From positions 1 through 17,017 of the forward strand of contig NZ_CP015786.1 in the NCBI RefSeq assembly GCF_001945665.1: a stretch of DNA of 17,017 bases. Direction: 5' to 3'. The position numbers and the translations under genes were made by a program. Each line of letters begins with the position of its first letter. Within the stretch, counting starts at the first letter, position 1. This stretch comes from Borreliella mayonii (GTDB lineage Bacteria; Spirochaetota; Spirochaetia; Borreliales; Borreliaceae). Positions 1 to 17,017 of this stretch are shown piece after piece. The notes below the pieces were generated by a model. It was given only the letters and a program-made list of their open reading frames with translations, was not told the origin of the DNA and made no database searches.

Positions 1-1087
1 ATTTTATTGACAAAAATATTAGTTTTTGCTATCATACATCTAATTTAATAAAGAGAAGTAAAAAGGTGTGTGATTTAAGAAAAACAAAACTAATAGATAA
101 AATAAGTTCACTAGAACTATACAAATACTCAATATTAAATACTCAATATTTTTTAGAAATTACATTGAAAATGTAGCAGAAGATTGCCTCAAGAACGGGC
201 TTGTTCTTGAGAGCGCTGACCACAATGTTAGTGAAGCTGAACTTGCTAGGTTAAAGGTACAGCTTAAAAATGCTCTACTTAATTGTATTATAAGCTACCG
301 TTTTCATGGGATTGGCTATGTTTTAGTAAAAACCAAAGATACCCTAATAGATCTTGAACAACCTGTTAATATAGAATTACCTATTGGTTTTGAATACCTT
401 GATTATGAATATGTAAGAGATTTGGGAGTTGATTTTGATCATATAACCTATAAAGTAAAATCCAACAATAAGAACAATTCTTTAGACGCAGTTAAAATAC
501 ATAAAAGTCGACTTATCATATATGAAAACTTTGATTATATCTTGAAAAGATATGTTCCGTGTTATGCCGAAAGCTTTTTGCTAGATATTTATTTATTTGA
601 AAAGATATACGTCGAAATAGAAAGACGTATTGAAAACCACAATTTTTTGTTTTACAAAGATGAATCTTTAGTACAACTACAAGACGCACTGTCTAGCGCA
701 ACAACTTCTTTAAGTGCACTTACTCAGAGCAATAATGATAGGGGAAGTGGCATTTTATCTTCTTTTTTGAGAAAACAAAATTCAAACAATCATAGTAAAG
801 ATATTTCTAATTCAAGAAACCTTAATGACTCATTATCACAGGAGCTTGCTAGGCTAAAAAGTAATCTAAATAATGAGGGAATGTTTTATACGGCCACCCC
901 TAGTGCTAGTTTAGAGGTTATTAAATACGACCTTAGTTACTTAAAGGAGGCCTTAGCATTAATTAAGGCAAAAATTGGTACAGATACTAAAGAGCTCTTA
1001 ACCAGAAGTTTTAATGAGCAGGCTAAAGGGCTAGGAAATGATGGTAAAGGGGATAGGAGTAATTATTACAACTTGACGCATTTTTAG
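1..1087 (+). pseudogene. Phage portal protein remnant (cp32 type), frameshifted
   Basis: In intact cp32 prophages the portal gene follows the large terminase; the portal ring is the DNA entry point of the capsid. A reading frame is open from base 3 with no start codon inside the window (GTG at 66 is one possible start) and reaches a run of six T at 149-154. There the cp32-like sequence changes frame and continues as FRNYIENVAEDCLKNG and onward, open to the TAG at 1085-1087. One lost T restores a continuous protein of about 350 residues. The last few residues (NLTHF) appear to come from reading a different gene out of frame after a deletion near 1065. The product would be truncated both by the frameshift and by the altered C-terminus. 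The family assignment rests on position and remembered cp32 sequence, not on a search. Confidence 0.7.
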
Positions 1088-1137
1088 AAAAACTAAAAAG
1101 AGAAACTTCAACGCCATCTTGTGTGGGGGTTGTCTAA
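1063..1137 (+). pseudogene. C-terminal scrap of a deleted late phage gene
   Basis: A second frame, closed upstream by TAA at 1060-1062, reads LLQLDAFLEKLKRETSTPSC and ends at TAA 1135-1137, sharing its last base with the ATG of the next gene. Such an overlap with a downstream gene is typical of a genuine gene end in a phage operon. The upstream part of this gene is absent and the portal gene runs into it out of frame, so this looks like the right-hand side of a deletion. I cannot name the family with confidence. Confidence 0.5.
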
Positions 1138-1520
1138 TGAATGGTGTTAGAAAAAGACTTTCTGATATGTCATTTCGCATGATCAACGTATTTAAGGATC
1201 CTAAACCCTTAAAGTTTTATAAAGGTACTGTTGTAAAGCTTTAAAATGATTCTTCTTATCAGAGAGTATTTGATAAAAATAAGTACACTGAATTCGCAGG
1301 AGTTATTATTGACATAAAGCCACAAGAACTTGTAATTCTTTATGATTCTGATATGTCTGATATTCAAGGATATTCCAAACTTTACACATATCAAGACCTT
1401 AACTATGAACTAAAAGACCGAATATCAATTGCAGATTTAGTTTACTTTGAAATATTTAGTATTGACTCTTCAATCGGATATTTTACTTTGGTTTTAAAGG
1501 AATTTATATGGACAAACTAG
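1137..1520 (+). pseudogene. DUF1506-family cp32 late protein, interrupted by a TAA codon
   Basis: The frame starts at ATG 1137, overlapping the preceding stop, and ends at TAG 1518-1520, for 127 codons. It reads MNGVRKRLSDMSFRMINVFK near the start and resembles the Borrelia DUF1506 family, one of the conserved cp32 late-region proteins of unknown structural role. Codon 36 is an in-frame TAA at 1242-1244, so only a 35-residue peptide would be made. The sequence after the stop keeps the normal frame and composition, which points to one recent nonsense change. The 3' end overlaps the next gene's ATG at 1508 by 13 nt, as in an intact operon. Confidence 0.65.
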
Positions 1521-1745
1521 AATTTAAAATGGAATTGGAAATTGGGTGGTTTGGTGGTCGTGCGCAGGTATTGCTAAAATGCATGAAAAAGGGAGTAACA
1601 ATTTACCAGCAAGAAAACATTTAACCAAAATTGATAGTAGCAATGAGTTTAGAGAATATATCAATAATAGCTATATAAATTCTAAATTTAATCTTGACCC
1701 TAAATCGGGAATGGGGGCTGTTGGACAAGCTTTTACAAGGTACTA
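1508..1745 (+). pseudogene. Virion-morphogenesis-type late gene, frameshifted and 3'-truncated
   Basis: ATG 1508 begins MDKLEFKMELEIGWFGGRAQ and then stops being family-like. From about 1566 a second frame continues as AGIAKMHEKGSNNLPARKHL, so about one base was lost near 1566. The KMHEKG...PARKHL stretch resembles the 'HExG....PAR.fL' signature of phage virion morphogenesis and tail-completion proteins, hence the tentative call. The second frame runs as ...GMGAVGQAFTRYYEIK and then meets holin-like sequence at about 1745. The C-terminal part of the gene and everything expected downstream in cp32 are missing, which marks a deletion endpoint. Confidence 0.5.
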
Positions 1746-2016
1746 TGAAATTAAGCCTTATAGCCGTAATGATTTTTGTAACGGTTTATGAGTTATATTC
1801 TCATTATAAATTAATCTATACAGCAAATATGGAAAGACTTGAGAGTACATTGACTCCAGCAATAAATTCGGCACTCGCTCCATTAGAATTAACCAAATCA
1901 ATAACCGTATTGATTTGGTTAATTCTAATGATAAAAATCTAAAAATATCTAATGATCTGAAATTCAATCAGGAAGGAAAACCTATCTATAAGGAAAGAAC
2001 ATATAATGCAAAATAA
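1745..2016 (+). pseudogene. Holin-like (blyA-position) membrane protein remnant
   Basis: Starting at ATG 1745 the sequence reads MKLSLIAVMIFVTV, a single hydrophobic segment close to the 'NEIKLIAVMIFVTV' I remember from BlyA, the small cp32 holin that permeabilises the inner membrane. It is followed by a charged helical stretch (NMERLESTLTPAINSALAPL). The frame then changes inside a perfect hairpin (1882-1929), and the likely original C-terminus is read in another frame (INQINNRIDLVNSNDKNLKI...YNAK), ending at TAA 2014-2016 and overlapping the blyB start by 11 nt. The N-terminus is replaced by the upstream deletion junction. The gene is non-functional as written. Identification as BlyA is tentative because only the membrane segment matches my memory. 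Confidence 0.5.
1882..1929. repeat. Perfect inverted repeat, 22-bp arms with a 4-nt loop
   Basis: The left arm at 1882-1903 (starts ATTAGAATTAACC) is the exact reverse complement of the right arm at 1908-1929 (ends GGTTAATTCTAAT), with loop ACCG. It lies inside the holin-like remnant exactly where the reading frame changes. It is not followed by a T tract, so it is not an obvious terminator. Confidence 0.9.
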
Positions 2017-2313
2017 CACTATTGGTTTAGGACTTAATTTACTATCCAGCTTAACTAACATAGCTAAAACTGATACAAACATAGATCATAATTACATTAA
2101 TATTTTAGTAAAGTAATAGATTTTTTCTACAAAACATATATAAGCAGACTAAAATCTATGGAAACAGCTGAGTCAACTAAAATATTTGAAGAAATACAAG
2201 ACATTTTAAAATACAACATTGAGATAATAGAGGCCATCTCTACTGACAAAAATAAAAAAATTATCACTTCACTTAAAGCAACACGTAACAAAATTATGAA
2301 AGAATATATCAAA
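2006..2313 (+). pseudogene. blyB: BlyB holin-accessory protein, single-base frameshift
   Basis: ATG 2006 starts MQNNTIGLGLNLLSSLTNIA, which I recognise as BlyB, the soluble protein that works with the BlyA holin of cp32/phiBB-1. In the starting frame it stops early at TAA 2114-2116. The conserved continuation (FSKVIDFFYKTYISRLKSME...) is in the next frame, so one T is missing from the run at 2103-2106. After the shift the frame stays open through KEYIKMLKR and directly into the next gene. Only a 36-residue peptide would be translated from the normal start. Its holin partner upstream is also damaged. Confidence 0.7.
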
Positions 2314-2667
2314 ATGCTTAAAAGATTGCATTGTCTACTAATTGCTTTGTTACTATGTTGTACTACTATTGCTAACCTAACAGAAGAACCAAAACCACCA
2401 ATTATTCAAACACTAAAATCTTTAGCTAAATATGAAACACAACTTTCAGAGTATGTTATGTACCTAGTAACATTTTTAGCTAAAACAAAAGTTAAAGTTA
2501 ATGATCCAAATTATCCAGAATATCCTTATCCATACTTATCAACACTAAAAGACGAACACTCCATAACTGCGGTAAAACATAATATCAAGATATATTTAGA
2601 GTACATTAAAAAAACAAAACCAATAGCGGGAAAAGTCTATAATCAATATTCCCAATTAAAAATGTAA
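2314..2667 (+). CDS. cp32 protein downstream of blyB, probable exported protein or lipoprotein
   Basis: ATG 2314 opens a 117-residue frame, MLKRLHCLLIALLLCC then TTIANLTEEPKPP. It has a short basic start, a hydrophobic core and two cysteines, which looks like an export signal, possibly a lipoprotein one although the lipobox (LLLCC) is not classical. The rest is helical and lysine/tyrosine-rich (YPEYPYPYLSTLKDEH, IYLEYIKKTK). In cp32 plasmids a gene of this kind follows blyAB, so a role near lysis or the envelope is possible but unproven. The frame is also continuous with the shifted blyB frame upstream, so the boundary between the two is an inference from the signal-like start. The gene itself shows no damage. 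Confidence 0.6.
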   Translation: MLKRLHCLLIALLLCCTTIANLTEEPKPPIIQTLKSLAKYETQLSEYVMYLVTFLAKTKVKVNDPNYPEYPYPYLSTLKDEHSITAVKHNIKIYLEYIKKTKPIAGKVYNQYSQLKM

Positions 2668-2733
2668 ATTACAAAAAGGTTTTTCCTGCAAGAAATTCTA
2701 CTTTATAATCAAATTGGCTTTTACAACAGAGAA

Positions 2734-2777
2734 AAAATCTAGATATTAGATTAACGCAGATTTAATATCTAGATTTT
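2734..2777. terminator. Inverted repeat between convergent genes, possible bidirectional terminator
   Basis: AAAATCTAGATATTA (2734-2748) and its exact complement TAATATCTAGATTTT (2763-2777) are separated by 14 nt. The arm ends supply A/T runs on both strands. It sits between the end of the bly-region gene (2667) and the end of revA (2805), which face each other. The stem is GC-poor, so strength is uncertain. Confidence 0.5.
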
Positions 2778-2804: not shown

Positions 2805-3281
2805 TTAATTAGTACCCTCTTCTAGAAATTTTATTATTTTTTCTATCTGTCCTACAGCGTTTGTAGCCATTTCTTGCCCTTTGCCACTAGTATTATTTCC
2901 ACTGAACGGTACAGTTACTCCAACTAATTTTGCCTCTTTCCATATATCCGTTTTCTTTTGGTCTTTATCTGTATAACCTTCAATTGTTTGTTTAGCTGCT
3001 TTTAACGCTGCTAATTTAGCCGCTAATTTATCTTTAAATAGACTTTGCAACTTTAATAGTTTTTCTTCAAGTTCTGCATTACTTACATCCTTTAAACTTT
3101 CTTTTAACTTATTTATTTTATCTTTATAATCTTTAAATGTGTCACCAGAAGAATCATTTTTAAGAACTAAAACGTCTGTACTCAATGAATCTATTTCTTT
3201 CTTTTCTTCTACGTATGCTTTACAAGCCATTATAAATAACATTGATACAAAAAATAATTTAAATATGTTTTTATTTTTCAT
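2805..3281 (-). CDS. revA: RevA-type surface lipoprotein
   Basis: A 158-residue lipoprotein of the Rev family carried by some cp32 plasmids; RevA of B. burgdorferi is surface exposed and binds host fibronectin. The signal peptide MKNKNIFKLFFVSMLFIMAC ends in a lipobox with Cys20 as the predicted lipidation site. The mature part is lysine-rich and helical, with a DKLAAKLAALKAAK stretch and the ending IEKIIKFLEEGTN, both as I remember RevA; known RevA is about 160 residues. A good ribosome site (AGGAG on the minus strand) lies 6-7 nt before ATG. It is divergent from the mlp genes and convergent with the bly-region gene. No damage is seen. Confidence 0.85.
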   Translation of the reverse strand: MKNKNIFKLFFVSMLFIMACKAYVEEKKEIDSLSTDVLVLKNDSSGDTFKDYKDKINKLKESLKDVSNAELEEKLLKLQSLFKDKLAAKLAALKAAKQTIEGYTDKDQKKTDIWKEAKLVGVTVPFSGNNTSGKGQEMATNAVGQIEKIIKFLEEGTN

Positions 3282-3455: not shown

Positions 3456-3881
3456 ATGAAAATTATCAATATATTATTTTGTTTATTTTTACTTATACTA
3501 AATAGCTGCACTGCTAATGATACACACATCCAACAAACAAAAAGTCGGGGAAAGCGCGATTTACCCCCAAAAGAAGTAACACAAGAAAAACCAAAATCTA
3601 AAGAAGAACTTCTTAGAGAAAAGCTATCTGAAGATCAAAAAACACACCTTGATTGGTTAAAAGAAGCTCTGGGGAATGATGGAAAATTTGATAAATTTTT
3701 AGGATATGATGAGTCAAAAATAAAAGAAGCGCTTGATCATATAAAAAGTGAACTTGATAAATGTACTGGAGAAAATGCAAATGAACAGAAAAGCACCTTT
3801 AAACAAGTGGTTCAAGGTGCCCTTGGCGGCGGAATAGATAGCTTTGCAAATCAAGCAAATAGCATGTGTGGTGGCAATTAG
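3456..3881 (+). CDS. mlp: Mlp-family lipoprotein, first of two tandem copies
   Basis: A 141-residue multicopy lipoprotein (Mlp, formerly '2.9 LP'). These are cp32-encoded surface lipoproteins expressed at mammalian-like temperature, with no settled function. The signal peptide [18 protein letters not shown] places the lipidated cysteine at residue 18. Next comes a charged linker ([15 protein letters not shown]) typical of Mlps, then a conserved helical domain with [20 protein letters not shown] and a C-terminal [14 protein letters not shown]...[10 protein letters not shown] segment. The AAAGGA ribosome site is well placed. The gene ends 20 bp before a second mlp with an almost identical signal-peptide coding sequence. 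It looks intact. Confidence 0.85.
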
Positions 3882-3901: not shown

Positions 3902-4528
3902 ATGAAAATTATCAATATATTATTTTGTTTATTTTTAATTATGCTAAACAGCTGTAATTCTAATGATAATGATACTTTTAATAACAAAAGTGTCCAGCAA
4001 ACAGAAAGCAGAAAAAAACGTGATTTAAGCCAAGAAGAGCTGCAACAACAAGAGAAAATTACTTTAACTCATAAAGAAGAAAAAATGTTCAATTTATTAA
4101 AAACTGTGTTTACATACACAATCAAAAAATTATACAACGAGATGCAAGAATCAATTAATGGGAATAAGGGTGAATATGAAAGCAAATGTAATAATTTCTT
4201 TAATTGGCTTTTCAAAGATCCTCAAAAACAAAAAGAATTGGCCAATGCATTTACTAAAGTTTATAACTTCTTAGAATCTAAAAGACAATCAAAAGCAAGT
4301 GGTGAAAGCTTTGATGCTTATATTAAAGGAGCCATTGACTGCAAAAATAATGATAATAATAAATATGGAAACGGAAGTGATAACGAAATACGGCAATATT
4401 TCAAAGGTGTAGCCGATAGTACATTTTCTCATAAAAATGACAACAATGAGATTTATAAGTGCCTTAAAGATGAACTTTTAGACGATACAAACCATTATGC
4501 CGGTCTTACAGCTAATTGGCAAAACTAA
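3902..4528 (+). CDS. mlp: Mlp-family lipoprotein, second tandem copy of a different subclass
   Basis: A 208-residue Mlp starting at ATG 3902. An in-frame codon further upstream overlaps the first mlp and would bypass the signal peptide, so 3902 is preferred. The signal peptide [18 protein letters not shown] (Cys18) nearly matches that of the upstream gene. The linker [15 protein letters not shown] is also related, but the mature domain differs and is longer ([40 protein letters not shown]), as in the second Mlp subclass. The gap between the two genes is only 20 bp with no promoter or terminator, so they are probably co-transcribed. The pair shares a 5' end and diverges afterwards, the pattern expected from recombination between cp32 plasmids or from duplication. 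A strong hairpin follows. Confidence 0.85.
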
Positions 4529-4626: not shown

Positions 4627-5553
4627 TTAAATTGTCTTTCTTTTTTTTAACATGCAAAAGAATTTTAATACTTTTGTTTTATAAACATCCCGATTATCAG
4701 ACATAAATACTTTAAGCTTATTTAGATCATCTAATCTATTAGTTTTATTGAAATATTCTTTTAGAATATTTGCCCAATATTCTATACTCTTAAGCTCAGC
4801 ATTCTTTTCTAAGAGATATTCAAAATCATCATCATTATCAGTACATAATGCCCGAATAAGAGCATTTATATTATTTTTTTCTTCACCTTCATTTACCCAA
4901 TTTTTTATATTAAACAGTGCGTCTCTAAAAATTTCATAGCAATAAGCCTTGCCAGATTTTAAGTTTTTATTAAAGCTGTTTAGTTGATTTTTTTCTTGAT
5001 TTATATCCTTTTTTTGTTCTTGTTTTCGATTAACACTAACTTGCTTGCTAGGCATAAAATTTGCGTTTTCATAATTATTGTAAATAGGCGCTGCATCGGT
5101 ATCAACTTCACTTTTTATATGAAGACATGTAACTAAAGCATACCTTTTGAAATAAGTAATAGCTGACCCAACCAGTTGTGGTGCTGTATTTACAACATTT
5201 TTAGACCCGTTTTCATTGTTCCATTGTAAGTTTTTTGTAAGCATTGGTGTATCAAAAGAAAATTCATATCCAGTACTTGTACTGTAAAATGTGGTCCTAA
5301 TAACATGCTCCTTTTGACCATCTACAAATTTAGATATTGGATATTGCTCAAAATCAAGCTCCAAATTGTGCTTATTAATAACGTTTTCGATTTCTTCTAC
5401 TATTTCATTGAAATTCTGATATTCGTATCCATATCCTTTAAGACTTTTGTCAATCCCTGGTAAATTCATTTTTAGGGTTTTCATATCTTTTCTGAAGCTT
5501 ATTTTTGCTTGAATATTTTCTTGTGGATTATTATTATTTGACATGTTTGTCAT
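4627..5553 (-). CDS. ERF-family single-strand annealing recombinase
   Basis: A 308-residue protein with an N-terminal ERF-type domain, the single-strand annealing protein of phages such as P22, which pairs complementary single strands during recombination. Residues about 38-150 show the family pattern: YGYEYQNFNEIVEEIENVI, FYSTSTGYEFSF, then APQLVGSAITYFKRYALVTC, the conserved 'GsaiTYakRYaL' signature. A polar lysine/asparagine linker follows, then a helical C-terminal part. The start MTNMSNNNN and the leader are shared with the exonuclease gene at 10127 on the other side of the replication cassette. An AAGGAG ribosome site and a promoter (TTGATA, 16 nt, TATACT) precede it. Annealase plus exonuclease form a Red/RecET-like pair. 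The gene is intact. Confidence 0.85.
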   Translation of the reverse strand: MTNMSNNNNPQENIQAKISFRKDMKTLKMNLPGIDKSLKGYGYEYQNFNEIVEEIENVINKHNLELDFEQYPISKFVDGQKEHVIRTTFYSTSTGYEFSFDTPMLTKNLQWNNENGSKNVVNTAPQLVGSAITYFKRYALVTCLHIKSEVDTDAAPIYNNYENANFMPSKQVSVNRKQEQKKDINQEKNQLNSFNKNLKSGKAYCYEIFRDALFNIKNWVNEGEEKNNINALIRALCTDNDDDFEYLLEKNAELKSIEYWANILKEYFNKTNRLDDLNKLKVFMSDNRDVYKTKVLKFFCMLKKRKTI

Positions 5554-5949: not shown

Positions 5950-7044
5950 ATGACAACATCAACCAATAAAAAAATTGTAACTTGCCACAACAAACACCAA
6001 TACAAATTAATATCTCTTACTTCAACACTAAATTACCTAAACAAAAAAGATAAGAAATACACTCAACAAATCATACTCTATTACTTTAATGAAAATCTAA
6101 AAAGAAATGGTTTAGCTCCCACTACACTGAGAACAATGCAAAATTATCTTTATAAATTAGAAAAAGTACTAAAAGTTACAACTAATTACTACCAACACAT
6201 GGGAGTAAATTGTGGGACTGAAATTTACTATAAGCTAAAGTATCCTAAAAATGAATGTTACCAGAAAATCAACAAGTACTTTAAAGAGCGAAAAAACTCT
6301 AGATTTAAATCTAGAGTTAATACCCATTTTAAAGACAATATTTCTAAAAATGGTAGTGTAAATTCAGTGGAGTGTTTAAGTAATAAAAATAATATAAAAG
6401 AAGAAAGAAAAATTAACCAAATAGAAAAGTATCAAATAAGAAATTATTTCAATAAATGTAACTTTAAGACGGAAGAAGCTCTTTCTATTTTGTATTTAAA
6501 TACTGATAAAGATACTAAGATTGAGGCAATGAAAATCTTAAAACAAAATGAAATTGTTCTAATAAAACGTTTTAATATAAAAAAATCTTGTATTAAAGAA
6601 AAGCAAAATAAATTAAAGAACATTCTAAATAACACTCAGAAAGAATTCGAAAAAAATGGATATAATCCTGAACAATTAGAAATAAATTTGCAAAAAGTAT
6701 ACGAAAATTACAAATTTAAGCCCCATTTTATTATTGAAAATCATAAATATAATGATTTAAGTTGCATAAAACGTAAATTAGAAAAGTCGATTGAAAGAAA
6801 AAAAGAAAATTCTCAACAAAATTATCAAAATTTAAAGGCAAACATTTTCAATATCCTTATTGAACAACTAAAAAAATATGCAAATATTGAAATTCTAAAG
6901 CCTATTATAAAAGAATATTTGAATAACCAAAAGAAAATAGAATACAATAAAGTATTTGGTACATATTATCTTGAATTATTAGAAATAATAAAAAATGAAA
7001 AAAATTCTTTAACCACAGAAGAATTTAGCATAAAGACCGTATGA
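5950..7044 (+). CDS. PF57/62 plasmid replication/maintenance protein
   Basis: A 364-residue lysine- and asparagine-rich protein of the Borrelia 'plasmid maintenance' family (PF57/62), which is needed for autonomous replication of cp32 and related plasmids and is thought to act as replication initiator. Typical features are the N-terminal TTSTNKKIVTCHNKHQYKLI stretch and the TLRTMQNYLYKLEKVLKVTT helix-turn-helix-like segment at residues about 60-80. The ATG at 5950 is preferred over a TTG at 5941 because AAGGAG at 5934-5939 is 10 nt from the ATG but only 1 nt from the TTG. It is first in a tight operon with DUF226, ParA, PF49 and bdr. It is intact, which argues that the plasmid replicates. Confidence 0.85.
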   Translation: MTTSTNKKIVTCHNKHQYKLISLTSTLNYLNKKDKKYTQQIILYYFNENLKRNGLAPTTLRTMQNYLYKLEKVLKVTTNYYQHMGVNCGTEIYYKLKYPKNECYQKINKYFKERKNSRFKSRVNTHFKDNISKNGSVNSVECLSNKNNIKEERKINQIEKYQIRNYFNKCNFKTEEALSILYLNTDKDTKIEAMKILKQNEIVLIKRFNIKKSCIKEKQNKLKNILNNTQKEFEKNGYNPEQLEINLQKVYENYKFKPHFIIENHKYNDLSCIKRKLEKSIERKKENSQQNYQNLKANIFNILIEQLKKYANIEILKPIIKEYLNNQKKIEYNKVFGTYYLELLEIIKNEKNSLTTEEFSIKTV

Positions 7045-7053
7045 GGATTTAAC

Positions 7054-7620
7054 ATGGGAAATGCACCCGAACCTATTGAAACTATAAAAAAAGGCAAATG
7101 TAAAGTTGAATGCCAAAACAAAGAACGCTTTATTAAGATTGAAAAAGAAAATGGCAAAGCAATGTACCATACAAAAATAATGATGGACATTTACAAATTT
7201 GGAGTTTATGAGAAAAAACATGAATTTAGATTATCATTGAGGGCTTTATTTAATGGAGAAAGAATTGTTGAAGAAACTCACTTGTATCCAATTAAAGAGG
7301 GAGATAAGTTTATTGGTATTTTTTATGGTTATAGAAAACCAATTAAAAAACCTTTAATAAAGTATCAAATAAATGGAACTAGAAAAGCATATGCATTAGC
7401 AAGGGCATATTATATGGAATTTAGATTTAAAGTTGGAAGTGTTTTTTGCTATTTTAAAGGATTGTATCGTTTATTGGATAAAAAAAGAACAAACAATCAC
7501 TACAACAAAGTTTTATTTAGTATGTTTACGGATTTAGAACAACAAGTATATAAATTTTATGGGAAAAAATACCCGGAGCAAGGACCGTTAATAAAATGGA
7601 TACTAAAAAACCTAAAATAA
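7054..7620 (+). CDS. DUF226 (PF50-type) plasmid partition-cluster protein
   Basis: A 188-residue basic protein matching the Borrelia DUF226/PF50 family, found beside ParA in nearly all Borrelia plasmid maintenance clusters. Its molecular role is not established; it is thought to support replication or partition. Family features are the start MGNAPEPIETIKKGKCKVEC, the centre YHTKIMMDIYKFGV, and the C-terminal YYMEFRFKVGSVFCYFKGLY. GAGGA within the preceding stop region provides the ribosome site 9 bp after PF57. The 3' end overlaps the parA start by 25 bp, so the two are probably translationally coupled. It is intact. Confidence 0.85.
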   Translation: MGNAPEPIETIKKGKCKVECQNKERFIKIEKENGKAMYHTKIMMDIYKFGVYEKKHEFRLSLRALFNGERIVEETHLYPIKEGDKFIGIFYGYRKPIKKPLIKYQINGTRKAYALARAYYMEFRFKVGSVFCYFKGLYRLLDKKRTNNHYNKVLFSMFTDLEQQVYKFYGKKYPEQGPLIKWILKNLK

Positions 7621-8345: not shown

Positions 8346-8347
8346 TT

Positions 8348-8383
8348 TTAGTTATAAGTTCAACGCGTTGAACTTATAACTAA
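8348..8383. promoter_or_regulatory. Perfect 36-bp palindrome between parA and PF49
   Basis: The half TTAGTTATAAGTTCAACG (8348-8365) is followed directly by its exact reverse complement (8366-8383) with no spacer. It begins 2 bp after the parA stop and its last base touches the AGGAGG ribosome site of PF49 (8383-8388). It has no T tract. Candidate roles are the plasmid centromere (parS) bound by the PF49 or DUF226 protein, an operator, or an RNA hairpin that tunes PF49 translation by sitting against its ribosome site. Confidence 0.85.
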
Positions 8384-8394
8384 GGAGGCTTGTT

Positions 8395-9991: not shown

Positions 9992-10155
9992 AGTTGGGTT
10001 TAGCTAAGTTCTTTAACAAAAGAATTTAAATAAGCCCAACTATTTTTTTGTAAAAATTTTTGTAAAAAAGTTGGCAAAAATAGTTTTTGCTATTTTAGTT
10101 ATTACTAAAATATAAGGAGTAAAAACATGACAAACATGTCAAATAATAATCCACA
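9992..10155 (+). repeat. Right copy of the inverted leader repeat, with terminator-like hairpin
   Basis: This is the counterpart of the minus-strand leader at 5528-5693. The hairpin pairs AGTTGGGTTTA (9992-10002) with TAAGCCCAACT (10031-10041), with an inner AAGTTCTTT/AAAGAATTT stem, and is followed by seven T at 10043-10049. It is therefore a plausible rho-independent terminator that shields the exonuclease promoter from upstream transcription. TTTTTTTGTAAAAATTTTTG, the TTG box, ACTAAAATATAAGGAGTAAA and the MTNMSNNN codons follow. Confidence 0.75.
10071..10098 (+). promoter_or_regulatory. Promoter position of the exonuclease gene
   Basis: TTGGCA (10071-10076) and the conserved 16-nt spacer match the ERF promoter, but the -10 position reads TTTTAG instead of TATACT. 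The exonuclease copy may therefore be weaker than the ERF copy. AAGGAG lies 7 nt before ATG 10127. Confidence 0.4.
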
Positions 10156-11449
10156 AGACATTAATCAAGGAGAGCTCAAAATGACAAGTGTTAATCAACA
10201 AAGTTTTACTGGTTGTGAAATATTTGAGGAAAAATCTTCTCCCATTAAAGAAAAAAGCAAATTAAGCAAAATATGCAAGAAATTACCAGGAATAAGTAAT
10301 CAAGAATGTTTTAGATTTAATCGAAATATTGATTTTAGTATACAAAGAAACAAACTTGATAAATACGGTGCTAGTGAAGTAGGCAATATTCTTGTTGGAG
10401 GTGCTGGGCTGAAGGATTTAATGATAAACAGAATGCTTAAATATTTTGATATGAGCCTACCTTTTGAAGAGAATTTATATATGCTCAAGGGCAAAGAGTT
10501 AGAGAATTTAGGATTTAGAGAATTTGTTAAAGCATACGGTGATAATATTGATATTTTATATAAAAACAAATATGCCAATGGAGTTGATAAGTATAACTAT
10601 TTCAAAAAAATGGGCAGTTCAGAAACTTTAGTGGGCTCAACAATTGATGGCTGGTTTATTAATAATAATGGCGATTTAGAATTATTAGAGATTAAAAGTA
10701 GCGACTCTAATTATATGAGTAGCGCTATTGACAAATATAATAAAAATGGCAATTTTTTAAGCAGCAAATATTTTTTCAAATATTATGTGCAGGCGCAAAT
10801 GCAGCTAGCATGTACTGGTCTTGAGCATTGTAATTTGTTCTTTTTAATAGATGCTGCATCAATTAACTGTAAGATTAAGAGAAATGAGGCCTTAATATCA
10901 AAAGTGTTTGAATTTGTTAATAAATGTGAATTAGAAATTATAAATTTAAAAAAAGATATTTATAGTAACCATAGAGAGGAATACTTAATGGCACATAATT
11001 TTAACGAGGATACGTTTATAAAACTTGTTGAGGATTTAGTAGAAAGGAGTGATTTTTATAGTTCTGGAGTTGAGTTTGATTGGGCAAGAGAATTTATAGA
11101 ATATGTTGATTGCGTAGACCTTGAAATTATGGATAGGCAAGTTGCTGAAAATGTTGCGTGTGATCTAATGGATGTTGATAGTGCAAAAAAAGAATTAAAC
11201 AAAACACAAAACGAACACAAAAAAATAGAAAAGCCTCTTAAAGATTTCATCAAAATGAAAACCGACAATATTACGAATACATGTCCACTAATTGAGCATG
11301 TAAATTATAGGTTTAGAGAATTTGTGTTCACTTTTGATTCTAAGAAAAGAGCAATATCAGATAGATTAAGTGGTTTATTGCCAACAAGTGAAACATTGTT
11401 TTTCCCTAGCAATATAGCATTTTCAAATAGTGTTGGTGTCCCCATGTGA
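10127..11449 (+). CDS. DUF244/YqaJ-type phage exonuclease
   Basis: A 440-residue protein of the Borrelia DUF244 group with a visible YqaJ/lambda-exonuclease-like (PD-(D/E)XK) core. Visible elements, in order: the GASEVGNIL segment at 81-89 (the family's conserved G-x-S), KGKELE at 121-126, the metal-binding aspartate D174 in GSTIDGWF, E188 and K190 in LLEIKSS, and Q222/Q226 in YYVQAQMQL. Such enzymes resect duplex ends 5' to 3' and load a single-strand annealing protein, here probably the ERF protein encoded at 4627-5553 behind the same leader. The N-terminal 60 residues and the lysine-rich C-terminal 160 residues lie outside the core. The start at ATG 10127 has AAGGAG 7 nt upstream. It is intact, and DUF261 follows 52 bp later. 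Confidence 0.8.
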   Translation: MTNMSNNNPQDINQGELKMTSVNQQSFTGCEIFEEKSSPIKEKSKLSKICKKLPGISNQECFRFNRNIDFSIQRNKLDKYGASEVGNILVGGAGLKDLMINRMLKYFDMSLPFEENLYMLKGKELENLGFREFVKAYGDNIDILYKNKYANGVDKYNYFKKMGSSETLVGSTIDGWFINNNGDLELLEIKSSDSNYMSSAIDKYNKNGNFLSSKYFFKYYVQAQMQLACTGLEHCNLFFLIDAASINCKIKRNEALISKVFEFVNKCELEIINLKKDIYSNHREEYLMAHNFNEDTFIKLVEDLVERSDFYSSGVEFDWAREFIEYVDCVDLEIMDRQVAENVACDLMDVDSAKKELNKTQNEHKKIEKPLKDFIKMKTDNITNTCPLIEHVNYRFREFVFTFDSKKRAISDRLSGLLPTSETLFFPSNIAFSNSVGVPM

Positions 11450-11501: not shown

Positions 11502-11903
11502 ATGCTTATTAATAAAATAAAACAAGATAATAGAACTTTACGCCCAGAGATACAAAGGTGGGGTTGTTACTTTTTGTGTCTACATTATTATACAAGTCTA
11601 TTTAAGAAACGTGAATTTAATGCTTATGAGATAAATGTAGCGTATTATAGATTTATAGGACTTGGCTACATTAAGAGTAATTGTTTTATTATAAATCCGT
11701 GTATGATGCTTAATTACTATGGAATTAGAAGTAGTGTGAGATATGAATCTTTTGGTTATTTGGGTACAGCTAATGAATTTGAAATAAGTGAAGTTAAAAT
11801 CGATAAGGTTAATGGATATCATTTTATAGCAACAAAAAATAAAGAAATATTATATGATTCACTTGACTTAAAACCTCTTAGAAAAATATTTAAAGTAACT
11901 TAA
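11502..11903 (+). CDS. DUF261-family protein, possible cysteine peptidase fold
   Basis: A 133-residue protein I recognise as the Borrelia DUF261 family. Its function is not established. AGGAGG about 10 nt upstream supports ATG 11502. Three elements resemble a small papain/C39-like peptidase core: Q18 shortly before C22 in IQRWGCYFLCL, H107 in NGYHFIA, and D119 in ILYDSLD, in the canonical Cys-His-Asp order. If active it could cleave peptides, for example in the cell wall, but it has no signal peptide and would need another export route. It follows the exonuclease gene and may share its transcript. It converges on the recombinase gene, with 30 bp between the stops. It is intact. Confidence 0.7.
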   Translation: MLINKIKQDNRTLRPEIQRWGCYFLCLHYYTSLFKKREFNAYEINVAYYRFIGLGYIKSNCFIINPCMMLNYYGIRSSVRYESFGYLGTANEFEISEVKIDKVNGYHFIATKNKEILYDSLDLKPLRKIFKVT

Positions 11904-11933: not shown

Positions 11934-12711
11934 TTACAGTTTTAAATTATTTTTCATGCATTTATAAGCGTGAATTTTGTTAGCAGCAGAGAGTCCATAT
12001 ATATTATCAATTTCGGAAGTTGAATGATATTTCATAAGCTCTTTAATTTGGAAATAGTTATAGCCATTAGATTTTAAATATGAAATAAACAAATTTCTAA
12101 ATAAATGGAGCGATTTATTAGCGCGAAATCCCGATTTTTTGAGAAGATTTTTAAATTTTTTAGAAATATTGATAATACTAATTTGATTGTATTTAAATTT
12201 ATGTTTGGTTTTTTGGAAAAGATAAGTACGTCGTAAGTCGAGATTTTTACTATTAAAATAATTTTCGTGGGCTTTTTGAATAGCCCGGAACTCTTCGGAA
12301 TTGATGACAATTTTTCTAATACAAGTGACATTTCTTTTTTTAGCGATATTTACTTTTATATTGTAAAAAAAATTCTCCAGTTTTACTTAATAGGGGAGTA
12401 ATATTTTGCATTTTTACTTTTTGCAGTTCTGCGCCCCTGCACCCACTTATTGCGAGTAGATGTAAAAACCAACCAGAAATTGGGTCAATTTGTTTTAATG
12501 TTTTGACGCATTTTTCAATTATTTTGATAGCTTTTGGGGTCAAATAAAACTTAGGAGTTGGCTTTAAAGTTTCTTTTTTTGGTTTAGATGAATTTTCTAG
12601 TGAATTTTTAAGAATTTTGTTTTCATTTACTATCTTTAGATAGTCTTGGAAGAATTTGCGCATAAAATCTGTATCAAAATTATTTAAATTAAAATAATTA
12701 TTCATGTCCAT
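11934..12711 (-). pseudogene. cp32 tyrosine recombinase (integrase), frameshifted in an A8 tract
   Basis: ATG at 12711 (or 12705) starts MDMNNYFNLNNFDTDFMRKF and the frame runs to residue 115, where an 8-A run (plus strand 12365-12372) throws it off and it ends as QYKSKYR. With one A removed, the protein continues as FYNIKVNIAKKRNVTCIRKI to a TAA at 11936-11934 and totals 258 residues. The restored protein keeps the tyrosine-recombinase catalytic set: R92 (SGCRGAEL), H202 and R205 (LHLFR), H229 (KYHS) and Y238 (NIYGL). The gene is thus one base from a complete enzyme. Slippage in the A8 run, or a sequencing error, are alternatives to true inactivation. It lies between DUF261 and the erp promoter, as in other cp32 plasmids. 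Confidence 0.85.
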
Positions 12712-12959
12712 AAAATCCTCTCCTTATAGTGTTACTTTTAAATTAAGTAAAAGTAATAAAAATAGATGAAAAAAGTAATTTATATTGTACCAAAAACAAA
12801 AAATTTTAGTCAAATTTTTGGGGTTCTCATTGCAAGAGAAATTTGGGTTGTAGAGTAGTTATGATAAACAGAATAGGCAATTTTTCGGGGTGGCAGATAA
12901 AGAAAGACATGATACTTTATCTAATCTATAGCAAAGACCCTGAAATTTAATTTGTATGC
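12712..12959. other. Non-coding DNA upstream of the erp control region
   Basis: About 250 bp with no gene. The first part holds the minus-strand ribosome site (GGAGAGGAT) and presumably the promoter of the recombinase gene. The rest includes a short G-rich patch (TTTTTCGGGGTGGCAG near 12881) and nothing I can assign. Confidence 0.4.
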
Positions 12960-13142
12960 ATTTTGTAGTTTTTTGTAATGAGTGGTGCATTTGCAATGGA
13001 GAGATTTTTGCGAGTTGATTAAAATTACATTTACGTTTTATTAATACGCAACAGGTGAATGTAGCAAAATCAAATATTTAAATCTTTGAAAAATTGCAAT
13101 TATTATGTATCAATGATATGATTGAGATTTATGGAGAGTATT
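12960..13142 (+). promoter_or_regulatory. erp promoter and operator region
   Basis: This stretch matches the conserved DNA in front of erp (ospE/F/elp) genes, where BpaB, EbfC and BpuR control transcription. The segment TTTTGTAATGAGTGGTGCAT begins the operator-1-like part. The operator-2-like part at 13047-13066 reads CGCAACAGGTGAATGTAGCA. The promoter is TTGCAA (13094-13099), 17 nt, TATGAT (13117-13122), so the leader is very short. GGAGAG at 13132-13137 is the ribosome site. The two positions that normally carry the EbfC motif GTnAC read GCAAC and GTAGC here, so EbfC binding may be altered. Confidence 0.75.
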
Positions 13143-14195
13143 ATGAGTAAGAAAATAAAAATATTTATTATTTGTACTGTTGTTATTATGATAAGTTCTT
13201 GTAAGAATTATCATGTAAGTAGTAAAGATTTAAAACAAAATGCAGAAGAGAAAATTAAAGGATCTTTAGATAAGATTTTAGATCCAACGAAGGATAAAAT
13301 TACTTCAAATGGGACAAAAGTAGATGAAGTAGCAAAAAAATTACAAGAAGAAGAAAAAAATGAATTAATGCAGGGCGATGATCCTAATAATGGCGTAATA
13401 AATCCTCCACCAGTATTGCCGGCAAGTAGTCAATATAATGCACCGGGATTAAAAGCAGAACAACAAAGTGGTGGTCAACAAGAAGAACAAGCTAAAGTAA
13501 GAAAGGAAGATAAGGGGAAAGGAGAAAAAACAGAAGATAGAAAAGAAAAACAAGAGGATAAAGAAGGAAGTGACAAAGAAAAAGAAGAAGTAGAAGAACA
13601 AAACAAAGGGAAAAAACAAGAAGCAGAAAAAGAAGCTAAAGAAAAACAAGAAAGAGAAGAACAACAAAGAAAAGCCAAACAAGAAGCAGAAAAAGAAGCT
13701 AAAGCAGAACAAGAAAGAGAAGAACAACAAAAACAAGAAGAAGAAAAGAAGGTTAAAGACAAAATCAAAAATCTTGTAGATAAAATAGATAAGATCAATG
13801 GAGATATTGATGGTATAAAAGGGAAAACAAGTGTGGGAGCAGAAGAAGTTAGAGATAAAATTACAGGACCTATATATGATGATTTTACTGATGGTAGTAG
13901 CTCTATACGTACAACTTGGGGGGATCTGGAAGATGACGAAGATTCAGACTTAGGAAAATTATTAAAAGAATTGAGTGATACTAGAGACAGTTTAAGAACC
14001 AAATTAAATGTAGGGAATCAACCATATATTATTGATACTAGAAGTATTGAGCCCCAATTAAAAGAAAATGTAAGTGTTAGCGAAATTAAATCAGACTTAG
14101 AAAAATTAAAATCAGAATTAGAAAAAGTTAAAAGCTATCTTAAAGATAGTTCTAAATTTGAAGAAATTAAAGGATACATCAGTGACAGTCAGTAA
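13143..14195 (+). CDS. erp: Erp surface lipoprotein, ErpB/Elp-like
   Basis: A 350-residue OspE/F-related protein (Erp) of the ErpB/Elp-like subgroup. Erps are surface lipoproteins made during mammalian infection; different members bind factor H, plasminogen or laminin. ATG 13143 is chosen because it follows GGAGAG and starts the signal peptide MSKKIKIFIICTVVIMISSC (Cys20); a longer frame from TTG 13122 would begin inside the -10 box. The mature protein has a KNYHVSSKDLKQNAEEKIKG start, a proline-containing linker, then a very long Lys/Glu/Gln-rich helical region with two 21-residue repeats (KQEAEKEAK...EEQQ). A conserved C-terminal domain follows (GPIYDDFTDGSSSIRTTWGD ... YISDSQ). cp32 erp loci often hold two genes; this has one. 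It is intact. Confidence 0.88.
   Translation: MSKKIKIFIICTVVIMISSCKNYHVSSKDLKQNAEEKIKGSLDKILDPTKDKITSNGTKVDEVAKKLQEEEKNELMQGDDPNNGVINPPPVLPASSQYNAPGLKAEQQSGGQQEEQAKVRKEDKGKGEKTEDRKEKQEDKEGSDKEKEEVEEQNKGKKQEAEKEAKEKQEREEQQRKAKQEAEKEAKAEQEREEQQKQEEEKKVKDKIKNLVDKIDKINGDIDGIKGKTSVGAEEVRDKITGPIYDDFTDGSSSIRTTWGDLEDDEDSDLGKLLKELSDTRDSLRTKLNVGNQPYIIDTRSIEPQLKENVSVSEIKSDLEKLKSELEKVKSYLKDSSKFEEIKGYISDSQ
13613..13738 (+). repeat. Tandem 63-bp repeat in erp (approximate ends)
   Basis: Two adjacent near-identical 21-codon units encode KQEAEKEAKEKQEREEQQ and KQEAEKEAKAEQEREEQQ, each followed by three variable residues. Repeat number in this charged region commonly differs between Erp proteins. Endpoints are approximate. 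Confidence 0.7.
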
Positions 14196-14280: not shown

Positions 14281-14337
14281 GTAGATTTCATTGTTATGAA
14301 TATAGAAATGTTTTCTATCAAAATTTTCATTTAAAAA

Positions 14338-14709
14338 GTGCAAAAACTATTGCTCAAAATATTGTTTATTTATATACTATCTATAATTAATATGTATACT
14401 AATGAGATTTCAAATTTTTATGATAATCTTAGTGAAGATTTAAAAAAGTCAATAAATAAACTTTATGAAACCGAGCAAGCAACTCAAGAGCAAAAAAGTC
14501 GAATGTATAGCTCTTATAAAGCAGCGCAAGAATACGGAATAAAAACTGGAAAAAGCACTGAGGAAATAATAAGTGACATTATAGACCATGTAAAAAAATT
14601 TATTAAAGACGTTCTGAAAGATAAATATTTAATAAAAAAACATAAAAATTCCAAAAATATGAAGCTTAATTGTAGCTGCAATAAAGGGATGTTAGATAAA
14701 TGTGTTTAA
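14338..14709 (+). CDS. Hypothetical cp32 protein between erp and terminase
   Basis: An open frame from GTG 14338 (123 codons) or from ATG 14391 (MYTNEISNFYDNLSEDLKKS). Neither start has a good ribosome site. The longer form begins with a hydrophobic stretch, MQKLLLKILFIYILSIIN, that could be an export signal, which favours it slightly. The body is helical and charged (KKSINKLYETEQATQEQKSR, KSTEEIISDIIDHVKKFIKD). The ending, NMKLNCSCNKGMLDKCV after a lysine-rich stretch, looks unlike the rest and may be read from the start of the next gene. I do not recognise the family. Position suggests a conserved cp32 gene at the head of the late region. Confidence 0.5.
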   Translation: MQKLLLKILFIYILSIINMYTNEISNFYDNLSEDLKKSINKLYETEQATQEQKSRMYSSYKAAQEYGIKTGKSTEEIISDIIDHVKKFIKDVLKDKYLIKKHKNSKNMKLNCSCNKGMLDKCV

Positions 14710-14732
14710 AAAAATTAGGAGAGTATGATTCT

Positions 14733-14912
14733 ATGGTATTTTTGGGGGCTGCTTATGGTATTCTTAATGATATTAATCAAAAAGTTCCAAAGCGATATCA
14801 ATTGATTATAATCAACGAATTTAAAGATATACTATTTGTAAGTATACACAACTATGACAAGAGAATTTTTACAAGCTATGATCTAATTAAAACAATAAGA
14901 GATTTTCCCTAA
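14733..14912 (+). CDS. Small cp32 protein, possibly a DUF1473-like fragment
   Basis: ATG 14733 has AGGAGAG 9 nt upstream and encodes 59 residues, MVFLGAAYGILNDINQKVPK to LIKTIRDFP. The frame is open back to ATG 14700 (MCLKKLGEYDS), just after a run of seven A (14708-14714 lies within it). Upstream, MKLNCSCNKGMLDKCV sits in another frame, so the original gene may have started near 14659 and been split by a frameshift in the A run. The composition (QLIIINEFKDILFVSIHNYD) suggests a small alpha/beta protein, and I tentatively associate it with the Borrelia DUF1473 family. Function is unknown. It may be complete from 14733 or a remnant. Confidence 0.45.
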   Translation: MVFLGAAYGILNDINQKVPKRYQLIIINEFKDILFVSIHNYDKRIFTSYDLIKTIRDFP

Positions 14913-15101
14913 TTTATATAGTCAAGCTATGACAAAATTTAATAAATTAGTTAATTACTATTTCTAAATCAATAAAAGTCAATAAATACCAAATACCTGT
15001 CAATAGATATCAACAAGATAATAGTTAATGTTAATAATTAATAAATTGAATTACTATTTAGAGTAACAAGTTGTTAATTTTGTTATTTTAGGAGAATTTT
15101 C
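14913..15101 (+). promoter_or_regulatory. Upstream region of the terminase genes with TCAATA repeats
   Basis: These 189 bp have no gene. TCAATA occurs at 14969, 14979 and 15000, that is 10 and 21 bp apart, about one and two helical turns. Short AT-rich dyads follow (near 15020-15050 and ACAAG-TTGTTAATTTTGTT near 15066). The end holds the AGGAGA ribosome site (15090-15095) for the TTG start at 15102. It could hold a late promoter, or a packaging site recognised by the small terminase; both are inference. Confidence 0.35.
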
Positions 15102-15668
15102 TTGAAAAGAGTTAAAAGGCCTTTTGATGATTATGTTGCGTATTTTAGAGAAGGATCGTTAAGCGATAAAGAAATAGCAGCTAAACTAAGGGTTTCCAAA
15201 GTAAATGTGTGGAGGATGAGACAAAAATGGAAAAGTGGAGAAAGTTTTGTTAACGAGGACTCTAGACTAACAATTAGTGAGGATATTTTTGAACACCTTT
15301 TATCACAAGCTTTTAAATCAGAAGTTAACGCCAAGAAAGTTAGAAGCGAATTGGATTTAGAGAGGGCTAATTTAGAATTAGGATTTATACGTGCATTTAA
15401 GCAATATTCTGGTGTTGAACTTGCTAGCATATATACTAAAATAGAAAATTTAATAACTGAAATTGACGCTTTAAATAAAGCAAATAGTAAAAAAAACAAG
15501 CAAGTTGTTAATGGAGAAATTAATTCTTTAAAAATCGAGCTTGATGAATATATAAAGGAGTGTTCAATAAGAGAAATGGAGCTTTACTATGAATGTATGA
15601 AAAAACTTGCAACTGCTAATGAGGCTGAAAGCAAAAACAACTACAAAAATAGTAAAGGGCACAAGTGA
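15102..15668 (+). CDS. DUF603 protein, probable small terminase subunit
   Basis: A 188-residue protein of the Borrelia DUF603 family located immediately before the large terminase gene, the usual place of a small terminase, which recognises phage DNA for packaging. Residues about 19-46 (LSDKEIAAKLRVSKVNVWRM) form a clear helix-turn-helix of the type found at the N-terminus of small terminases, and the rest is a long coiled coil (VRSELDLERANLELGF, KIENLITEIDALNKANSKKN) suited to oligomerisation. The TTG start is supported by AGGAGA 6 nt upstream. The stop overlaps the GTG of the large terminase by 4 nt, so the two are translationally coupled. It is intact, unlike its partner. Confidence 0.7.
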   Translation: MKRVKRPFDDYVAYFREGSLSDKEIAAKLRVSKVNVWRMRQKWKSGESFVNEDSRLTISEDIFEHLLSQAFKSEVNAKKVRSELDLERANLELGFIRAFKQYSGVELASIYTKIENLITEIDALNKANSKKNKQVVNGEINSLKIELDEYIKECSIREMELYYECMKKLATANEAESKNNYKNSKGHK

Positions 15669-17017
15669 ACTTATATCAAACAAAACTTTTTACAACATTA
15701 CAAAAGGAATACAAAAATAAATATGGAGTTGACATATCGCAATTTATAAAGCTAACAAACTCTTTAATTGATTTTGCTAAGTTTGAAGAAAAACAGTTAA
15801 CTTTAAAGCAAAAAAATGTAATAAAAAGCATTAAAAAGAATAATGAAAAGAAGATTATACTCAGCGGTGGTATAGCTAGTGGCAAAACATATCTTGCGTG
15901 TTATCTTTTTCTAAAAAGTTTAATTTAAAATAAAAAGTTATACTCTAGTGATACGAATAATTTCATTATTGGGAATTCACAACGCTCAGTTGAAGTTAAT
16001 GTTTTGGGACAATTTGAAAAGCTATGTAAACTTCTTAAAATTTCGTATATTCCAAGACATACAAATAATTCATATATTCTGATTGATTCACTGCGTATTG
16101 ATCTATACGGTGGAGATAAGGCAAGTGATTTTGAAAGATTTAGGGGAAGTAATTCGGCACTTATTTTTGTCAATGAGGCTACAACTTTACACAAGCAAAC
16201 GTTAGAGGAAGTCTTAAAAAGACTAAGGTGCAGGTAAGAAACTATTATTTTTGATACTAATCCCGATCATCCAGAACACTATTTCAAAACCTATTATATT
16301 GATAATATAGCGACCTTTAAAACATATAATTTTACAACTTATGATAATTTGCTACTTAGCAAAGGATTTATCGAAACACAAGAAAAACTCTATAAAGATA
16401 TACCATCATATAAAGCAAGAGTTTTGCTAGGTGAGTGGATAGCAAGCACTGATTCAATTTTTACACAAATAAATATTACTGATGATTATGTATTTACTAG
16501 CCCGATAGCATATTTAGACCCAGCATTTAGTGTTGGCGGGGACAACACTGCATTATGTGTTATGGAGCGAATTGATGATAAGTATTATGCTTTTGTATTT
16601 CAAGACCAACGACCAGCCAATGATCCTTATATTATGAATATGGTAAAGACTGTTATAGAAAATTTCAATGTGTATACACTGTATTTAGAGGATAGAGATA
16701 ATATAAAAGGTGCTGGTGGATTGACCTGTGAATACATCTTGCTAAGAAATAATATAAGCCAATATTTTAGAATTGTTCCAGTTAAGCCAAAGTCTAATAA
16801 ATTTAGCAGAATAACAACGTTAATTACGCCGTTTACTTATAAGAAACTTTATATTACAAAGTACAGTAGTTCTTCTGTATTTAATGATATTTATTCGTAT
16901 AAGGGGGATAGCAAAACCCATGATGATGCTCTTGATGCAATATCTGCAGCATATTTGATGTTGTCTTTAGGATATAGAGAGCGAAGTGTTCACTTTGGCA
17001 ATCAAAGATTTTTGTAA
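15665..17017 (+). pseudogene. Phage large terminase, interrupted by two in-frame TAA codons
   Basis: A 450-codon frame from GTG 15665 to the TAA at 17015-17017 encodes the cp32 large terminase, the ATP-driven motor and nuclease that packages phage DNA. Visible motifs: Walker A GGIASGKT (residues 68-75), Walker B SALIFVNEAT, and the RNase H-like nuclease parts YLDPAFSVGGDNTALC, LYLEDRDNIKG and THDDALDAISAAY with their acidic residues. TAA codons interrupt at codon 88 (15926-15928) and codon 191 (16235-16237); the frame is otherwise continuous, with no shift. Only an 87-residue fragment with Walker A would be made. Restart products are possible but would lack the ATPase. In cp32 the portal gene comes next. 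Confidence 0.88.

What the first reader, a model, noticed from the sequence alone, without database searches (positions are those of the whole stretch)
1..17017. A cp32 prophage reduced to a lipoprotein, recombination and replication plasmid, possibly helper-dependent
All replication/partition, recombination and lipoprotein genes are open, while portal, DUF1506, morphogenesis, holin, blyB, integrase and large terminase are broken or missing. Tail and most capsid genes are absent. The putative small terminase and its upstream DNA are intact, so an intact cp32 phage in the same cell could in principle package this replicon, spreading rev, mlp and erp alleles. Shortened cp32 (cp18-type) plasmids are known; the satellite-like role is my inference.
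Basis: partly seen in the sequence, partly recalled or inferred. Interest (0 to 1): 0.7.

Follow-up and report, generated by a model that had tools for sequence, protein, structure and literature searches.

The report
Shortened prophage plasmid of Lyme spirochete
This is a 17-kb circular plasmid of the Lyme agent Borreliella mayonii, a published deletion product of a 30-kb phage-plasmid that has lost nearly all of its particle-making genes but keeps its replication genes, its surface-lipoprotein genes and the DNA stretch where phage packaging starts, so an intact sister phage in the same cell might carry it.

Summary
The window is Borreliella mayonii MN14-1539 plasmid cp32-6, complete and circular. 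Two deletions (about 4.3 and 9.5 kb) removed most of the virion operon. Of 26 packaging, assembly and lysis proteins of PBi cp32-7, only DUF603, the putative small terminase, is open here. Replication/partition, ERF, DUF244/YqaJ and lipoprotein genes are open.

It is already in print: Kingry 2016 reports this truncation; cp18-type truncated cp32s are long known. The published phiBB-1 pac region lies upstream of erp, not directly upstream of the small terminase; the window keeps that interval whole. The same strain has a full helper candidate, cp32-4 (26 of 26 open).

Added here: all 14 truncated circular cp32s sampled keep the pac interval, one of three stretches kept by all 14. Against a satellite reading: erp genes lie beside it, also in the smallest plasmid; the window's pac is no better conserved than its dead neighbours; no hijacking gene was recognised. 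Packaging by cp32-4 is plausible but unshown.

The parts
66..1072 (+). portal (DUF1073) remnant: frame broken near the 5' end, 3' part lost at deletion junction 1
   Evidence: tblastn of cp32-4 proteins; blastn
1068..1069 (.). deletion junction 1 (cp32-1 map 1055 to 5335), 2-bp overlap, no long homology
1069..1746 (+). remnants of DUF3890 (3' end), DUF1506 (one internal stop) and the following gene
1750..1783 (.). deletion junction 2 (cp32-1 map 6015 to 15511), no long homology
1775..2325 (+). two blyB (holin accessory) genes, both broken
2314..2667 (+). BBA14/orfD family lipoprotein, open
2805..3281 (-). revA, annotated fibronectin-binding protein, open
3456..3881 (+). mlp lipoprotein, shorter type, open
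3902..4528 (+). mlp lipoprotein, longer type, open
4627..5553 (-). ERF single-strand annealing protein, open (308 aa; not in the record's gene table)
5950..8973 (+). replication/partition block PF57, PF50 (DUF226), PF32 (ParA), PF49, all open
8977..9645 (+). bdr repeat protein, open
10127..11449 (+). DUF244 protein with YqaJ/RecE-like exonuclease match, open
11502..11903 (+). DUF261, open but 8 residues shorter than in cp32-4
11934..12711 (-). tyrosine integrase pseudogene
12712..13142 (+). integrase-erp intergenic interval that holds the phiBB-1 pac region in other cp32s; complete here
13143..14195 (+). erp lipoprotein (annotated ErpC), open
14392..14906 (+). DUF643, broken
15102..15668 (+). 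DUF603, putative small terminase, open; predicted N-terminal helix-turn-helix and long helices
15665..17017 (+). large terminase, in frame but with two internal stops

Best explanation
The window is a deletion-derived, defective cp32 phage-plasmid of cp18 type. Two illegitimate deletions took out most of the virion operon, and further lesions broke portal, DUF1506, blyB, integrase and large terminase (order of events unknown). It persists because its own PF57/50/32/49 block replicates and segregates it and because its surface lipoprotein genes (revA, two mlp, BBA14, erp) serve the bacterium (inferred). It cannot make particles by itself. Because the whole interval that holds the pac site is kept, and cp32-4 of the same strain has all tested late genes open, induced phiBB-1 machinery should be able to start on this replicon and fill heads from its concatemers; two unit lengths, 34.0 kb, are about 1.1 cp32-4 lengths. 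Shown: anatomy, broken and open genes, presence of the interval, presence of a helper candidate. Inferred: a working pac site, concatemer formation, packaging, transfer. I put packaging above the general background at about 0.5 and selection for being packaged at about 0.15-0.2. The confidence below is for the defective-cp32 account with packaging left open.
For: Identity with NZ_CP015802.1; two deletions; 1 of 26 late or packaging genes open here against 26 of 26 in cp32-4 and 25 of 26 in cp32-1 of the same strain. The pac interval is complete; 249 of 255 near-invariant columns among 42 distinct sequences match. Faith 2024 shows that a cloned cp32 pac region raises packaging of a shuttle vector and that packaging is headful. 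All 14 truncated circular cp32s sampled keep this interval. Replication genes show dN/dS of 0.05-0.33 to their three best relatives.
Against: No packaging data for this replicon. Its pac interval deviates at 5 of 238 near-invariant columns, no less than the dead integrase (6 of 490) or dead large terminase (12 of 1058) and more than PF57 (0 of 507) or PF50 (1 of 275), so there is no sign of constraint. Faith 2024 associates divergent pac regions with low packaging (CA-11.2A cp32-1) or an inactive isoform (B31 cp32-9); the window's interval is 79-91% identical to the 43 others compared. My near-invariant measure does not separate active from inactive B31 isoforms: cp32-1 deviates at 0 of 254, cp32-6 at 1, the inactive cp32-9 at 1, cp32-3 at 7 of 257. 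The primers that bound the cloned pac region were not found in the window with up to 3 mismatches, and the cut-site motif is only in a figure, so it was not tested.
Confidence: 0.8

Rival explanations
1. A plain decaying cargo plasmid: the pac interval is kept only because it lies directly before erp (and probably holds its promoter) and beside the retained core, and the replicon is packaged no more than any other DNA.
For: The dead neighbours are as well conserved as the pac interval. Of the 14 truncated cp32s, at least 12 have an erp gene next to it by annotation or by my own check: the smallest, MM1 cp32-4, has no erp in its gene table only because the gene runs over the record origin, and an open erp is there; the other two have an unnamed open gene at that place. 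The arc from DUF244 to pac is kept by at least 13 of 14, so pac stands out within it by one plasmid only, B. maritima cp32-2, and there the pac interval is the most diverged of 46 (25 of 243 columns). cp9-sized records persist with only a 72-bp piece of it.
Against: None that separates pac from erp; the interval is longer than a promoter needs and its integrase-side half is uniform in the window (0 deviations in the first 225 bases), but dead genes are nearly as uniform.
Confidence: 0.45
2. A dedicated phage satellite that exploits and interferes with cp32 helpers, selected as a parasite of phiBB-1.
For: Helper candidate present, pac kept, own replication block, virion genes gone; N40, 297 and MM1 also show both about 30-kb and truncated cp32 records.
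Against: The genes recognised are ordinary cp32 genes; no capsid-size, terminase-switch or interference module was recognised. Most deletion endpoints differ between plasmids, as for repeated independent loss rather than one satellite lineage.
Confidence: 0.08
3. Assembly or culture artefact: a collapsed full-length cp32-6.
For: cp32s are hard to assemble because they are alike.
Against: Kingry 2016 gives 17,017 bp for cp32-6 at 153x mean coverage with no size difference listed between two isolates and no cp32-6 row in its table of differences; the window differs along its length from the four sister cp32s.
Confidence: 0.03

Closest known systems
cp18 / cp18-1 / cp18-2 (N40 cp32-7, 297 cp32-7 and cp32-9) and N40 cp32-4
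   Same: Circular cp32s shortened by deletion inside the virion operon, with partition and lipoprotein genes kept (PMC3303823 passages)
   Different: Different endpoints; the window has two large deletions plus small lesions, and its large terminase is broken while that of N40 cp32-4 is open
Borrelia maritima CA690 cp32-2 (16,877 bp)
   Same: Similar size, revA with two tandem mlp genes, few annotated virion genes, pac interval present
   Different: Other deletion endpoints, about half of the integrase gene gone, pac interval strongly diverged
phiBB-1 / full-length cp32 prophages, e.g. B. mayonii cp32-4
   Same: Same gene order in the shared blocks, same partition block layout, same pac interval
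   Different: 26 of 26 tested late genes open in cp32-4, 1 of 26 in the window
Helper-dependent phage satellites (P4, PICI) and pac-bearing defective phage DNA (recalled, no call)
   Same: No virion genes of its own, own maintenance, a helper's packaging site
   Different: No recognised hijacking or interference module; derived directly from the helper's own family

Membership tests
cp32-family phage-plasmid | cp32 PF57-PF50-PF32-PF49 block with ERF, mlp, DUF244, DUF261, integrase, erp, terminase in cp32 order | tested here: met
   (integrase and large terminase present but broken)
cp32-family phage-plasmid | complete virion assembly, packaging and lysis operon | tested here: not met
   1 of 26 genes open
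truncated cp32 (cp18 type) | deletion confined to the virion assembly region with partition and lipoprotein genes kept | tested here: met
   definition from passages of PMC3303823
phiBB-1-packageable pac replicon | pac interval between integrase and erp present in full | tested here: met
phiBB-1-packageable pac replicon | exact cut-site motif present | not tested
   motif given only in a figure of PMC11008901; the text that I read gives no letters
phiBB-1-packageable pac replicon | DNA of this replicon found in particles | not testable with these tools
   needs particle sequencing
phage satellite | own genes that redirect or interfere with a helper | tested here: inconclusive
   family scans of 10 (Pfam) and 5 (PHROGs) window proteins and comparison with 42 cp32 proteins show ordinary cp32 genes only; revA, mlp, erp and PF50 were not scanned, and genes without a named function cannot be excluded
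phage satellite | dependence on a helper for transfer | not testable with these tools
   no transfer data
small terminase (DUF603) | DNA-binding domain plus oligomerising helices encoded just before the large terminase | tested here: inconclusive
   position and overlap, predicted HTH and long helices at mean pLDDT 74, best small-terminase match E 0.015 in BFVD, no match at E 0.001 or better in either library

The most novel reading that the evidence does not exclude
Shortened cp32s are a recurrent class of helper-dependent passengers of phiBB-1: independent deletions strip virion genes but spare replication, ERF and the pac interval, so the shortened replicons ride in heads made by full-length cp32s, about two unit lengths per head, and spread rev, mlp and erp alleles without making phage themselves.
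Probability: 0.2. Interest if true: 0.65.

Novelty: already known. Interest (0 to 1): 0.35.

Why it matters
The plasmid and its truncation are published. What is added is a concrete, cheap test: pac was mapped in 2024, and all 14 truncated cp32s sampled here keep that interval, several in named strains (N40, 297, MM1) that also have cp32 records of about 30 kb (whether those are intact was not tested). Sequencing particle DNA from such strains would show whether defective prophages carrying host-interaction lipoproteins still move between Lyme spirochetes, which bears on how erp, rev and mlp diversity is spread.

Tried and rejected
The internal control removed its force: dead genes beside it are equally conserved.

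pac without erp: I first took MM1 cp32-4 as a plasmid that keeps pac but has no erp gene, because its gene table lists none. A recheck found an open erp that runs over the record origin, so this argument is withdrawn and I lowered the novel case from 0.25 to 0.2 and raised the plain-cargo rival from 0.40 to 0.45.

Rotation test of deletion placement: the fraction of rotations sparing pac was 0.50-0.77 per plasmid, but the gap list included allele divergence at PF32 and erp, so I do not use it; the coverage count replaces it.

Deletion hotspot: left endpoints of three plasmids lie within 43 bp in the portal gene, but uniform draws give three or more in 43 bp in 1339 of 20000 for all 32 endpoints and 171 of 20000 for 16 left endpoints, chosen after the fact; not claimed.

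First completeness table used cp32-4's own proteins (DUF244 from cp32-1) as reference, so its column for cp32-4 is circular; repeated with 26 PBi cp32-7 proteins.

dN/dS: the dead large terminase still shows 0.10-0.17, so its loss is recent and low dN/dS of other genes on this plasmid says little about the time since the deletions. revA against its best relative gives 1.26 on few changes; erp 0.42-0.62; not interpreted.

Small terminase: no PDB sequence match, no PHROG, weak folds. CA-11.2A, the strain in which pac was mapped, was not found: its lp54 accession is not in the collections and I saw no CA-11.2A row in the capped listings. No pac match in the phage collection or of one primer in viral contigs; a search for PF50 relatives in viral contigs gave no confirmed locus.

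Papers: 'cp32' with 'helper' and 'satellite', and with 'defective prophage' and 'transduc', gave 0 papers each; phiBB-1 with cp18 gave 2. Passages of PMC13155636 and PMC5870499 mention truncated or deleted cp32s only in passing or not at all. My 'not in print' rests on these searches of open-licence papers only.
Full report
What the window is. The 17,017-base window is identical over its whole length to NZ_CP015802.1, plasmid cp32-6 of Borreliella mayonii MN14-1539, a circular record. Kingry et al. 2016 (PMC5193363; passages and the cp32 section read) describe this plasmid: a truncation gives a 17-kb circle that has lost 21 ORFs compared with other cp32s, listed at 17,017 bp and 153x mean coverage with no separate size for the second isolate, and with no cp32-6 row in the table of differences between the two isolates. 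The reduction is therefore real, not new, and reported for two isolates.

Anatomy. Against cp32-1 of the same strain the window falls into collinear blocks separated by two large deletions: cp32-1 positions 1055 to 5335 and 6015 to 15511. Junction 1 has a 2-bp overlap; junction 2 shows no long shared sequence, as for the non-homologous events that Casjens 2012 (PMC3303823, passages) describes. Elsewhere revA stands where cp32-1 has a bdr gene, two mlp genes stand in tandem, and one erp gene is present where cp32-1 has two. A tandem mlp pair is not new: Stevenson and Brissette 2023 (PMC10016077, passages) describe mono- or bicistronic mlp operons.

Which genes are open. With 26 packaging, assembly and lysis proteins of PBi cp32-7 as reference (the DUF693 gene, which is not in that record's gene table, left out), the window has 1 of 26 open over at least 90% of the reference length, DUF603. 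cp32-4 of the same strain has 26 of 26, cp32-1 25 of 26, cp32-13 21 of 26 and cp32-3 19 of 26. Portal, DUF1506, both blyB genes, integrase, DUF643 and large terminase are broken in the window. ERF (Erf-like annealing protein) and DUF244 (YqaJ/RecE-like exonuclease) are open and make a phage-type recombination pair by family. The replication and partition block is open, with dN/dS of 0.05-0.33 to the three best relatives of each gene.

Packaging site. Faith et al. 2024 (PMC11008901; abstract, sections 8, 9 and 22 and passages read) mapped the phiBB-1 packaging start to the interval upstream of the erp genes, report headful packaging, and report that a 377-bp region there, cloned in a shuttle vector, raises packaging of the vector. 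In the window the interval between the integrase start and erp (12712-13142) is complete; it matched 43 other loci over most of its length at 79-91% identity (one more locus, L045, matched over 82 columns only). Among 42 distinct sequences (44 loci including the window, 2 duplicates dropped), the window departs from columns that are at least 95% uniform in the others at 6 of 255, none of them in the integrase-side 225 bases (12712-12936). On the same measure B31 cp32-3, an isoform reported as active, departs at 7 of 257, and B31 cp32-9, reported as inactive, at 1 of 254, so the measure does not predict activity. The two cloning primers were not found in the window with up to 3 mismatches; of 7 loci then held, one primer occurs exactly in N40 cp32-4 next to erp, the other in none. 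The exact cut motif is in a figure and was not tested.

Survey of truncated cp32s. I mapped 14 circular cp32-family plasmids shorter than 26 kb on cp32-4: the window, 297 cp32-7, and 12 that the listings of a replication-block query without pac contain (for B331 I used the record, the listing showing one of the same size). Eight of the 12 had been seen before in lists drawn with the whole window or with pac; four came from the pac-free query alone as far as the listings show (MM1 cp32-7, PAbe cp32-3, B. maritima cp32-2, VS116 cp32-5). Left out: linear records, repeat records judged by strain and length, cp9, and records under about 80% identity to the block, which I took for other plasmid families without checking. 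Each listing showed 60 of 193 records, so the set is a sample. All 14 keep the pac interval. Of 444 sliding 430-bp windows present in four longer cp32s used as controls, 66 are kept by all 14; they form three stretches: blyB/BBA14 (15501-16480), ERF with PF57/PF50 (17901-20680), and the integrase 5' end with pac and the first bases of erp (25351-26030). DUF603 is fully covered in 10 of 14 and the large terminase in 8 of 14, some of those being broken (which held the window and 8 of the other 13).

Why it is not yet a satellite. First, the neighbouring dead genes of the window are as well conserved as pac: 5 of 238 near-uniform columns changed in pac, 6 of 490 in the dead integrase, 12 of 1058 in the dead large terminase, against 0 of 507 in PF57 and 1 of 275 in PF50. 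The losses are recent, so conservation says nothing about use. Second, pac and erp go together: an erp gene, or in two cases an unnamed open gene, follows the interval in the plasmids surveyed (gene tables). MM1 cp32-4, whose table lists no erp, has one that runs over the record origin. The erp promoter probably lies in the interval (recalled), which would be reason enough to keep it. Third, at 13 of 14 plasmids the stretch from DUF244 to pac is kept almost throughout, so pac belongs to a retained core and stands out only because B. maritima cp32-2 lost parts of the rest. Fourth, in that plasmid the pac interval is the most diverged of all 46 (25 of 243), and cp9-sized records persist with a 72-bp piece of it. 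Fifth, no gene with a helper-directed role was recognised.

The putative small terminase. DUF603 overlaps the start of the large terminase, has no PHROG and no PDB sequence match, and is predicted to have three short N-terminal helices followed by long ones (mean pLDDT 74, pTM 0.44). A small terminase is second among BFVD matches at E 0.015; the best PDB match is at E 0.29 and is a metal-dependent regulator. The assignment remains likely by position only.

Mechanism judged most likely. A defective cp32 is kept as a plasmid by its own partition block and by the value of its lipoproteins, and can be packaged in trans when cp32-4 is induced. Two lengths of the replicon (34.0 kb) are close to the 30.4-kb cp32 unit plus a little, so size is no bar in principle, and a shuttle vector with pac was packaged in the published work. 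Packaging, concatemer formation and transfer are inferred.

Verdict. Real, ordinary in kind, already in print as a truncated plasmid; the helper idea is plausible, not met in the papers that I searched, and can be tested by sequencing particle DNA of existing strains.

Noticed in passing
window 2805-4528; L064 8983-10698: revA followed by two tandem mlp genes of different length types occurs both in the window and in the reduced cp32-2 of Borrelia maritima; among the loci held, the longer mlp of the window is closest to that of B. maritima (72%).
   Followed up: partly
window 1068; L003 1037; L064 3927: Three truncated cp32s from three species have left deletion endpoints within 43 bp inside the portal gene, with different right endpoints; weak by chance test.
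   Followed up: yes
L007 (B. mayonii cp32-3), L005 (cp32-13), L002 (cp32-1): Three of the four longer cp32s of this strain also have late genes that are not open over 90% of the reference (7, 5 and 1 of 26), so cp32-4 is the only one with all tested late genes open.
   Followed up: yes
NZ_CP015962.1 4413-4483 and three other small records: A 72-bp piece of the pac interval (query positions 313-384) sits on records of 8.3-11.4 kb, among them the strain's own cp9, at 83-86% identity.
   Followed up: no
L052, L062, L053, L054: B. burgdorferi MM1 holds four truncated cp32s among those fetched, the smallest 13.3 kb without any terminase match; its erp runs over the record origin and is missing from the gene table.
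   Followed up: partly
L068 4376-9234: B. bavariensis PBaeII cp32-4 is annotated with a type ISP restriction/modification gene and DnaB-like helicase pieces in a region where cp32-4 of B. mayonii has virion genes.
   Followed up: no
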